In this document: piece after piece, positions 49,724-52,128 of the stretch
How positions within the stretch are numbered: position 1 is the first letter of the stretch
How the letters are laid out: every line of letters begins with the position of its first letter
NCBI GenBank assembly: GCA_903848905.1
Contig: CAINHP010000246.1
Coordinates: 1 to 52,128, forward strand
Reading direction: 5' to 3'
Length of the DNA stretch: 52,128 nucleotides
Source: an uncultured Pseudomonadota bacterium
GTDB lineage: Bacteria; Pseudomonadota; Gammaproteobacteria; Methylococcales; Methylomonadaceae
The notes under the pieces: generated by a model
Database searches by the model: none
Seen by the model: the letters and a program-made list of their open reading frames with translations, nothing else
Told to the model about the DNA's origin: nothing
Translations under genes and position numbers: made by a program

Positions 49724-49742
49724 GTTTTTCATTTTTGGATTG

Positions 49743-49779
49743 GGTGACATTTTTATATTGAAAATGTCACCTGTTTTTT
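49743..49779 (+). terminator. Rho-independent terminator after the NfnAB-like gene
   Basis: A perfect 11-bp stem GGTGACATTTT (49743-49753) with AAAATGTCACC (49761-49771), a 7-base loop and then a T run. Confidence 0.9.
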
Positions 49780-50474: not shown

Positions 50475-52016
50475 ATGAATACAGAAGATTTAAAAAAACG
50501 AGTTGATGAAGAACTTCATTCATTGAATGGGGTAATTGATTACGCTGAAAAAATGATTAGCGAAAATCGTTGGAAAGCAGATTGCGAAATACTAAAACGC
50601 CGCGCTTACGCTAAAACCGTCGTTCTTGAAACGGAGAAAAAAGGTAAATCTGTTTATAGATTAACAACAGCGTCAATTACAGACAAATTGGCATCAGGAC
50701 TTGCAACGCCTTATTCACCAATAGGAATGCTTTGTAGTGTTGCAAATGTTGGTTTTGACGGTGAATCTAAAATGTTAGGTGAATTTGAAGTGATTGAAAC
50801 TCGACTTTTTGATAGATTCGACGGTATTGGTTATTTGAACAATGTACGTAATTTTTTCAAAATGGAAATTCTAACGACAAATCATTCAGACGAAGTGATT
50901 GATTTGAAAAACTTTGTTGATGATTCACAAAAAATCATTGCAACTAAAACAATTAAAAAAATAGAAAAACCAATCGTTAAAAAAATTGAAACTATACAAC
51001 CTAAAATAGAAACGCCTATTTTTATAATTGAAGATGATGAGTTAGAAACTACATCTGAACATGAGTTCGATGATGAGGATGATGACTTTGATGATATTAA
51101 ACAAGATGACAGTTATTTTGGGCTAAATGAAGTTTTTTACGTTAACCAAACCATTCAACAACACAAAATTATTGCCCGTTCTCCTTTGGGTGCAATATAT
51201 GTTGAAGGCGTAGCAGGTTCTGGTAAAACTTCTGCTGCATTAGGCAGAACAAAAATGCTGTGCGGTTTTAATGCCGAAAATGTTTTTGAAAAATCTCAAT
51301 TTGAAGAAGTTTTAGGTGATAACTTTGATTATTGGGAAGGTAAATATGCGGGTAAATTTTCACAAGATGGTAGCATAGGTTTCGTTAGAACAGCAGAACT
51401 AATTAAATATCTGGAAGAAACGTGCAGACGAATCGATTTGCCAAACTTGCCAATTCATGAATATACAGAACTTCAAATTACCCTAAAAAATCGCCACAAA
51501 ATTACCTCATCTCAACTTCACTATGGCAATTGGAAAGGTGGAGCAACAAGAGATTCACACATAGACACCACTATGCGTTGGCTGTTTGCAGCTGATAAAA
51601 ATATAGCATATTTTTTATCAAAAAATTTACAGCATAATTTACCTAGCGTTGAATCAATTGCTAATCGTTTTGTTAAAGATGAACAATGGGTTCTAAATGT
51701 TGTAAAAAAAGCCTTTGAACATTTTAGGATTGAATTTAATCGAATTGAAAAAGAATTATGTCAATCAAATAGCCACCGACGTTTTTTACTCGATGGTTTA
51801 GCAGAAAAAGTAAATCAAGCTATAAAATTAACAAGCAAAGAGATACTCGGAAAAAATACCTTGTGGTTTTTTTATCAAAATTTTGCGTTATGTGCTAACA
51901 GTGAACGCGGTATTGCTGAATTACTTATAACAAATAATGTGCCGTTGCTTAATAAATCAGGCTCAAAATTTAAATTCGCTGACATTGATGATTTGTACTT
52001 AAAATTATTACCTTAA
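50475..52016 (+). CDS. Gre-like domain plus HelD-type SF1 helicase N-terminal half (probably interrupted)
   Basis: A 513-residue frame. Residues 1-45 are charged helix, coiled-coil in character. Residues 46-112 resemble the C-terminal FKBP-like domain of GreA/GreB: YRL at 61-63, SPIGML at 81-86 and EFEVIET at 103-109 fall where GreA has YRI, SPIARGL and EFEVIKV. A Lys/Ile linker and an acidic stretch (about 185-212) follow. Then TIQQHKII and the Walker A GVAGSGKTSAALGR (245-258) match HelD/UvrD-type SF1 helicases. Motif II (DExQ) and later helicase motifs are missing from the visible part. The frame ends at TAA 52014-52016, but the same frame continues coding-like. It is likely an RNA-polymerase-associated or defence-related helicase; that role is inference. 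Confidence 0.75.
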   Translation: MNTEDLKKRVDEELHSLNGVIDYAEKMISENRWKADCEILKRRAYAKTVVLETEKKGKSVYRLTTASITDKLASGLATPYSPIGMLCSVANVGFDGESKMLGEFEVIETRLFDRFDGIGYLNNVRNFFKMEILTTNHSDEVIDLKNFVDDSQKIIATKTIKKIEKPIVKKIETIQPKIETPIFIIEDDELETTSEHEFDDEDDDFDDIKQDDSYFGLNEVFYVNQTIQQHKIIARSPLGAIYVEGVAGSGKTSAALGRTKMLCGFNAENVFEKSQFEEVLGDNFDYWEGKYAGKFSQDGSIGFVRTAELIKYLEETCRRIDLPNLPIHEYTELQITLKNRHKITSSQLHYGNWKGGATRDSHIDTTMRWLFAADKNIAYFLSKNLQHNLPSVESIANRFVKDEQWVLNVVKKAFEHFRIEFNRIEKELCQSNSHRRFLLDGLAEKVNQAIKLTSKEILGKNTLWFFYQNFALCANSERGIAELLITNNVPLLNKSGSKFKFADIDDLYLKLLP

Positions 52017-52128
52017 TCAAACAATAAGCCTTATTTACTTTATGATGAAAATAAACTAATAGCGATTAAATTAGAACAGTTCAGAGGTTATGGAAGTCGC
52101 CAATTACTCGAATCATGGACAATTCATA
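52017..52128 (+). pseudogene. In-frame continuation of the Gre/HelD-like gene past the stop
   Basis: After the TAA at 52014-52016 the same reading frame stays open for 37 codons to the window end and reads SNNKPYLLYDENKLIAIKLE, then QFRGYGSRQLLESWTIH. The residue mix is protein-like, and CAA instead of TAA would give an uninterrupted LLPQSNNKP. This fits a nonsense mutation, a sequencing error or recoding. No start codon with a ribosome site was seen for a separate gene. Confidence 0.55.

What the first reader, a model, noticed from the sequence alone, without database searches (positions are those of the whole stretch)
50475..52128. Gre-factor-like domain joined to a HelD-type SF1 helicase
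The N-terminal 112 residues look like a transcript-cleavage (Gre) factor: a charged helix, then an FKBP-like domain with YRL, SPIGML and EFEVIET at GreA-like spacing. After an acidic linker comes a HelD-like Q-motif/Walker A (TIQQHKII...GVAGSGKTSAALGR). HelD proteins remove or recycle RNA polymerase by reaching its secondary channel with a Gre-like arm, so a true Gre domain on a helicase would be a distinct way to target stalled polymerase. The AT-rich, edge-of-island setting next to DUF2442 also allows a phage-defence role.
Basis: partly seen in the sequence, partly recalled or inferred. Interest (0 to 1): 0.75.

Follow-up and report, generated by a model that had tools for sequence, protein, structure and literature searches.

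The report
Gre-headed HelD-type motor, broken copy
A rare bacterial motor protein joins a docking head like that of Gre transcription factors to a HelD-type engine that may pull RNA polymerase off DNA; some relatives sit among anti-phage genes, and the copy in this genome is broken.

Summary
The ORF at 50475-52016 is real but broken: it stops in frame at codon 514, and its other half lies at the end of contig C159 with a further internal stop. Seven intact relatives, one a 65%-identical 930-aa orthologue in the same genus, and one decayed copy show a rare, patchy family. The motor matches HelD over 512 columns but UvrD-like helicases only locally. Residues 41-112 match the GreA C-terminal domain by profile comparison (score 50.6; best of 200 shuffles 18.1). 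Published HelD structures already have a Gre-like N-terminus, so the architecture is not new. New are a separate clade in Pseudomonadota without HelD's DWR motif, a head closer to Gre than to HelD, a longer motor insertion, and BREX or type I restriction genes beside 3 of 9 loci. Best reading: a HelD-like motor that docks on RNA polymerase by the Gre head and strips it from DNA. Polymerase binding and a defence role are inferred; structure prediction was uninformative.

The parts
50475..52016 (+). Open part of the Gre-HelD-like gene, 513 codons and an in-frame TAA
   Evidence: 64% identical over 507 codons to the intact G011 orthologue
50475..50594 (+). Short N-terminal helical segment (residues 1-40), shorter than the coiled coils of GreA or HelD
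   Evidence: alignment; the helix assignment comes from a low-confidence model
50595..50810 (+). Gre C-terminal-like domain (residues 41-112) with SPIGML at 81-86
   Evidence: profile comparison with Gre proteins
50811..51149 (+). Linker (residues 113-225) with an acidic stretch before the motor
   Evidence: sequence
51159..51161 (+). Glutamine Q229, invariant in 8 of 8 aligned members; Q motif by position (motif name recalled)
51207..51230 (+). Walker A, GVAGSGKT (residues 245-252)
52014..52016 (+). In-frame stop (codon 514) that breaks the gene
52017..52128 (+). Continuation of the same frame to the contig end; still similar to the G011 orthologue
   Evidence: the other part of the gene is at G000:C159:34234-35286

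Best explanation
The intact family encodes a HelD-type ATP-driven motor that acts on RNA polymerase. The Gre-like head docks at the rim of the polymerase secondary channel, a short N-terminal helical segment points towards it, and the SF1 motor with its long insertion pries polymerase off nucleic acid, as HelD does. The gene moves among Pseudomonadota as a lone gene or within defence islands, where removing polymerase from invading or blocked DNA could aid defence. The copy in this window has been inactivated. Shown here: the two-part architecture, motor homology to HelD, head homology to Gre, patchy distribution, defence neighbours at some loci, inactivation in this genome. Inferred: polymerase binding, polymerase removal, any role in defence.
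For: Motor: 7 intact members carry the SF1 motifs; profile match to 13 DWR-bearing HelDs E 4.4e-36 over 512 columns, against 84 and 64 columns for 13 UvrD-like helicases; best PDB sequence match is B. subtilis HelD, E 3.5e-16; NF041464 HelD is the best NCBIfam hit of 3 of 3 members scanned; motif II-to-Va spacing 178-186, HelD 157-173, UvrD-like 330-332 where measured. Head: score 50.6 against Gre, best of 200 shuffles 18.1; two disjoint subsets give 33.1 and 32.2; Gre proteins fill 15 of the first 17 places; 3 of 8 members weakly hit Pfam GreA_GreB, the family hit by most members. The family's SP falls on serine 124-proline 125 of the 158-aa G011 GreA; in E. coli GreA, also 158 aa, S121P lowers polymerase binding and S124L leaves 9% antipause activity while still binding (passages of PMC7527559). 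Setting: BREX genes at two loci, type I restriction genes at a third. dN 0.24 and dS 1.20 between the window and G011 copies, dS near saturation.
Against: No binding or activity was tested. The HelD DWR motif is absent in 8 of 8, and HelD model scores (38-72 bits) are far below the cut-off of 419. Every Pfam Gre hit is below cut-off; a PDB search with the head profile found no Gre up to E 10; the Gre HMM gives family members only E 0.46 or worse. AlphaFold models had mean pLDDT 42.5 and 47.2, and the head was not folded as a Gre domain. In the window clade only about 45 residues precede the Gre-like domain, so a deep secondary-channel arm is unlikely. 5 of 9 loci showed no defence system in what I scanned.
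Confidence: 0.55

Rival explanations
1. Ordinary recycling: a HelD-like stress or maintenance factor that frees stalled polymerase; its presence in islands is chance carriage and has nothing to do with defence.
For: HelD works so in Gram-positives (abstract and passages of PMC7749165); several loci are housekeeping surroundings: G011 between a carboxypeptidase gene and carA, the window beside a PHP-domain gene, G268 straight after mfd (carA and mfd named from their sequence).
Against: Rare and patchy (2 of 18 genomes of the genus), often lower in GC than its surroundings (6 of 7 loci measured, counting the window and leaving out L009 and L096, which were not measured), and beside BREX or restriction genes in 3 of 9 loci.
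Confidence: 0.3
2. A DNA helicase of a defence nuclease pathway, such as the UvrD-like helicase GajB, in which the Gre-like head has lost polymerase binding and serves another contact.
For: PADLOC's best, partial hits of the G844 protein are GajB helicases (E 3e-12); nuclease genes lie near some copies (GmrSD_N genes directly downstream in G844 and P. veronii; a PD-DExK/NucC-like protein in P. huaxiensis).
Against: The GajB hits cover only SF1 motif regions; the motor is HelD-like along its length, and the UvrD-type stretch between motifs II and V is missing.
Confidence: 0.15
3. A true, very divergent HelD that lost DWR, not a separate clade with its own head.
For: In a weak alignment HelD's DWR[A/S]P loop falls on the family's TPxSP; HelD's N-terminal domain is Gre-like in structure.
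Against: Head profile scores 50.6 against Gre and 14.2 against 13 HelD N-termini; in a 36-row tree the family is one group (100/100) apart from 13 HelDs (91/86), with long branches and a midpoint root.
Confidence: 0.3

Closest known systems
HelD, RNA-polymerase recycling motor (NCBIfam NF041464, NF041465; classes I-III)
   Same: SF1 motor without the UvrD-type stretch between motifs II and V, an insertion between Walker A and motif II, a Gre-like N-terminal domain before the motor
   Different: No DWR motif (0 of 8), longer Walker A-to-II stretch (323-461 against 245-319), a linker with an acidic stretch in several members, a shorter N-terminal arm in the window clade, and a head closer in sequence to Gre than to HelD
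GreA/GreB C-terminal domain (Pfam PF01272)
   Same: Profile match across the whole domain, SP motif aligned (6 of 8 members have SP, one AP, one SL)
   Different: Sub-threshold in Pfam; fused to a motor; no full Gre coiled coil in the window clade and no acidic pair shown at a tip
TPR-GreA/B-C-PIN conflict system (Kaur et al. 2021, PMC8195603, passages)
   Same: A GreA/B-C domain proposed to bring a counter-invader protein to RNA polymerase
   Different: Its effectors are PIN and other domains with TPR repeats; here the partner is a HelD-type motor, and no TPR or PIN hit appeared in the 3 full-length members scanned with Pfam
BREX
   Same: BREX core genes surround or adjoin the gene in G844 and P. 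veronii
   Different: Found beside BREX at only 2 of 9 loci; not a PADLOC BREX component

Membership tests
HelD | SF1 motor motifs with HelD-like spacing | tested here: met
   7 intact members; (motif II was found by the pattern in 10 of 13 HelDs)
HelD | Absolutely conserved DWR motif (PMC8655204) | tested here: not met
   0 of 8 family members; 13 of 15 comparison ORFs have it
HelD | Curated HelD model cut-off (NF041464, 419 bits) | tested here: not met
   61.5, 38.2 and 72.2 bits
HelD | Gre-like N-terminal domain with long secondary-channel coiled coil | tested here: inconclusive
   Gre-like domain by profile; about 45 residues precede it in the window clade, more in G1100, G829 and G044; no usable model
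HelD | Binds and recycles RNA polymerase | not testable with these tools
   needs an experiment
GreA/GreB | Homologous C-terminal domain | tested here: met
   against it: no PDB Gre hit and sub-threshold Pfam hits
GreA/GreB | Pfam PF01272 gathering score (26.9 bits) | tested here: not met
   12.1 bits for the G044 member; best E 0.046 among 8 N-termini
GreA/GreB | FKBP-like fold | tested here: inconclusive
   pLDDT below 50 over the domain
GreA/GreB | N-terminal coiled coil with catalytic acidic pair | tested here: inconclusive
   only inspected in the alignment; the window clade is too short for a full one
BREX component | Conserved presence with BREX core genes | tested here: not met
   2 of 9 loci

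The most novel reading that the evidence does not exclude
An undescribed clade of HelD-type motors in Gram-negative bacteria forms part of BREX and restriction islands and uses a Gre-derived head to seize host RNA polymerase and evict it from invading DNA: a transcription-clearing arm of anti-phage defence.
Probability: 0.28. Interest if true: 0.8.

Novelty: new variant of a known kind. Interest (0 to 1): 0.52.

Why it matters
The HelD survey could not verify HelD in Gammaproteobacteria and notes the assumption that insertions of Gram-negative polymerase would hinder it (passages of PMC8655204). A HelD-type motor clade scattered through Pseudomonadota, with a head closer to GreA than HelD's own, makes that question testable. 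Its place in BREX and type I restriction loci raises the possibility that clearing polymerase from DNA is part of some defence systems.

Tried and rejected
Scans of the window ORF alone: Pfam gave no HelD, UvrD or Gre hit, NCBIfam only a weak HelD match at Walker A (E 0.00045), PADLOC none, because most of the motor is missing. YjcQ, PP-binding_2 and DUF7229 (E 0.008-0.07) were set aside as sub-threshold; in the head alignment YjcQ and PP-binding_2 each hit one member of 8 and DUF7674 two. AlphaFold of head and full length failed for want of sequences. The Foldseek match to HelD (6wvk, E 1.9e-11) comes from a model of mean pLDDT 47.2 and is not used as proof. PDB search with the head profile: no Gre up to E 10.

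Searches without a family member: viral contigs, phage records, E. coli genomes by DNA with the G844 gene. Plasmids: one family member, P. veronii, in each of four searches; a Shinella and a Pseudalkalibacillus record matched by the helicase part only.

Read-through of the internal stops was considered and not favoured; the G268 copy is also decayed. The neighbour control (0 of 79 other SF1 loci with any of 17 neighbour proteins; 4 of 8 family loci) is biased: the 17 queries were taken from those same 4 loci, and the control loci differ in length (3 to 17 kb). In one search the script failed after the spacing tables; the linker charge count was not made, and motif II was missed by the pattern in 3 of 13 HelDs and 9 of 13 UvrD-like rows. 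The 3,712 decoys include two GreA ORFs (places 23 and 27). The paper search is useless as evidence because 'HelD' also matches the word 'held'.

Full report
What is in the window. The ORF starts at 50475 and ends at an in-frame TAA at 52014-52016. The same frame continues to the end of the window, which is the whole contig C246. A search of the same genome with the G011 orthologue finds residues 568-920 at the end of contig C159 (35,290 bases), in one frame but with an internal TAA just after motif II. A TAA at the very edge of C159 lies just outside the aligned part and may be a third. The gene is thus divided between two contig ends and has at least two internal stops. Against the intact G011 copy, the window part has dN 0.24 and dS 1.20 over 507 codons, dS near saturation; this points to purifying selection over most of the divergence and recent damage.

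Relatives. Intact: G011 (same genus, 930 aa, 65% identical to the window part), G044, G844, G829, G1100, the P. veronii plasmid LT599585 (986 aa) and P. huaxiensis (L009). Decayed: G268, with a frameshift and internal stops. Counts, own or centre genome included: 3 of 200 relatives, 2 of 369 of the class, 3 of 398 of the phylum, 1 of 116, 2 of 63, 1 of 289, 1 of 244; the sets overlap, and searches used a stricter limit (1e-30). Plasmids: 2 of 72,556 records matched, one over most of the query. Phages: 0 of 50,697 records. Viral contigs: no relative.

Motor. The intact members share G(V/I)AGSGKTS, DEVQDF(T/S)E, GDxxQ, N(L/I/F/K)RQ, KGLEFD and YV..(T/S)R. A profile of 7 members matches 13 DWR-bearing HelDs at E 4.4e-36 over 512 columns; 13 UvrD-like helicases match over 84 columns (E 2e-15) and 64 columns (E 4e-5) only. 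The II-to-Va spacing is 178-186, against 157-173 in the 10 HelDs measured and 330-332 in the 4 UvrD-like rows measured; the Walker A-to-II stretch is 323-461 against 245-319. In a tree of 36 motor rows the 7 family members form one group (100/100), apart from the 13 HelDs (91/86); branches are long and the root is a midpoint.

Head. The N-terminal 150 residues and their counterparts in 8 members, as a profile, match residues 84-158 of the G011 GreA with probability 92.8% and score 50.6; the best of 200 column-shuffled Gre alignments scores 18.1 and the reversed one 13.2. Two disjoint subsets give 33.1 and 32.2; window plus G011 give 20.2 and the window alone 22.5, so the window by itself would not settle it. 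Against 13 HelD N-terminal domains the score is 14.2. As an HMM the head ranks Gre proteins at places 1-8 and 15 of the first 17 among 3,752 sequences, with best E 0.0066. Three of 8 members hit Pfam GreA_GreB below its cut-off. Against this, the PDB profile search found no Gre, the reverse search with a Gre HMM gives E 0.46 and 0.95 for two members, and AlphaFold was unusable. The alignment puts SPIGML on GreA's SPFARA; SP is kept in 6 of 8, AP in one, SL in one. That serine is number 124 of the 158-aa G011 GreA (counted); in E. coli GreA, also 158 aa, S121P lowers polymerase binding and S124L leaves 9% antipause activity but still binds (passages of PMC7527559); that the numbering matches between the two species is assumed.

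What is known. Pei et al. 2020 (PMC7749165) and Kouba et al. 2020 (PMC7749160), both seen as passages, describe HelD's N-terminal region as GreA/B-like. Larsen et al. 2021 (PMC8655204, abstract and passages) divide HelD into three classes, call the DWR motif absolutely conserved and could not verify HelD in Gammaproteobacteria. Kaur et al. 2021 (PMC8195603, passages) propose GreA/B-C domains as polymerase-directed modules in TPR-PIN conflict systems. Searches combining HelD or Gre with defence terms or BREX returned no listing that names this family (listings only, and passages of PMC12458937, where 'GreA' matched the word 'greater'). Most subscription papers are not held, so absence from print is not shown.

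Setting. In G844 the gene lies, all on one strand, after the C-terminal part of a split PglX and before a GmrSD_N gene, a UvrD-like helicase, an NYN-LOTUS protein, PglZ and BrxL; an RT-nitrilase gene (UG5) stands between the PglX parts. On the P. veronii plasmid a GmrSD_N gene follows 25 bases downstream, and BrxL, PglZ and PglX of other subtypes begin 2.9 kb further on. The two GmrSD_N genes are not close: the G844 one did not find the other at E 1e-5. In G044 the start overlaps the end of a 309-aa gene that follows an AAA_15/21 ATPase and type I restriction genes hsdR, hsdM and hsdS. In P. huaxiensis a PD-DExK/NucC-like DUF6602 gene lies downstream, among transposase-like ORFs (transposases named from sequence). 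In G011, G829, G1100, G268 and the window I saw no known system, but not every neighbour was scanned. So 3 of 9 loci have BREX or type I restriction genes beside them, 4 of 9 with the nuclease gene.

Mechanism. The likeliest reading is a HelD-like motor that docks by its Gre head and pulls polymerase from nucleic acid with ATP. The short N-terminal segment of the window clade would not reach the active site as HelD's arm does, so it may lean more on its long motor insertion; this is inference. Whether it serves stalled host transcription or acts on transcription of invading DNA is open; the patchy distribution and the neighbours lean to mobile or defence use.

Noticed in passing
L094:11017-17761 (G844): A BREX PglX gene is in two parts with an RT-nitrilase (UG5) gene between them, itself a defence-type reverse transcriptase.
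   Followed up: partly
L031:6558-8699 (Thioalkalivibrio sp. ALMg11): A DWR-bearing HelD in a gammaproteobacterium, a class in which the HelD survey could not verify it.
   Followed up: partly
L096:7620-10554 (G268): The decayed family copy begins at the very end of an mfd-like gene (named from sequence), as if once translationally coupled to this transcription-repair factor.
   Followed up: partly
L005:1301-3193 (P. veronii plasmid): A protein with S1/CSD-like domains of TOTE conflict systems stands next to a PDC-M16A defence candidate, about 9 kb from the family gene.
   Followed up: no
L098:7197-8885 (G1100): A protelomerase-like gene (ResT/TelK catalytic domain) lies 0.75 kb before the family gene.
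   Followed up: no
window 49741-49773: A strong terminator-like hairpin follows the 1224-aa oxidoreductase-like ORF and separates it from the AT-rich stretch.
   Followed up: no
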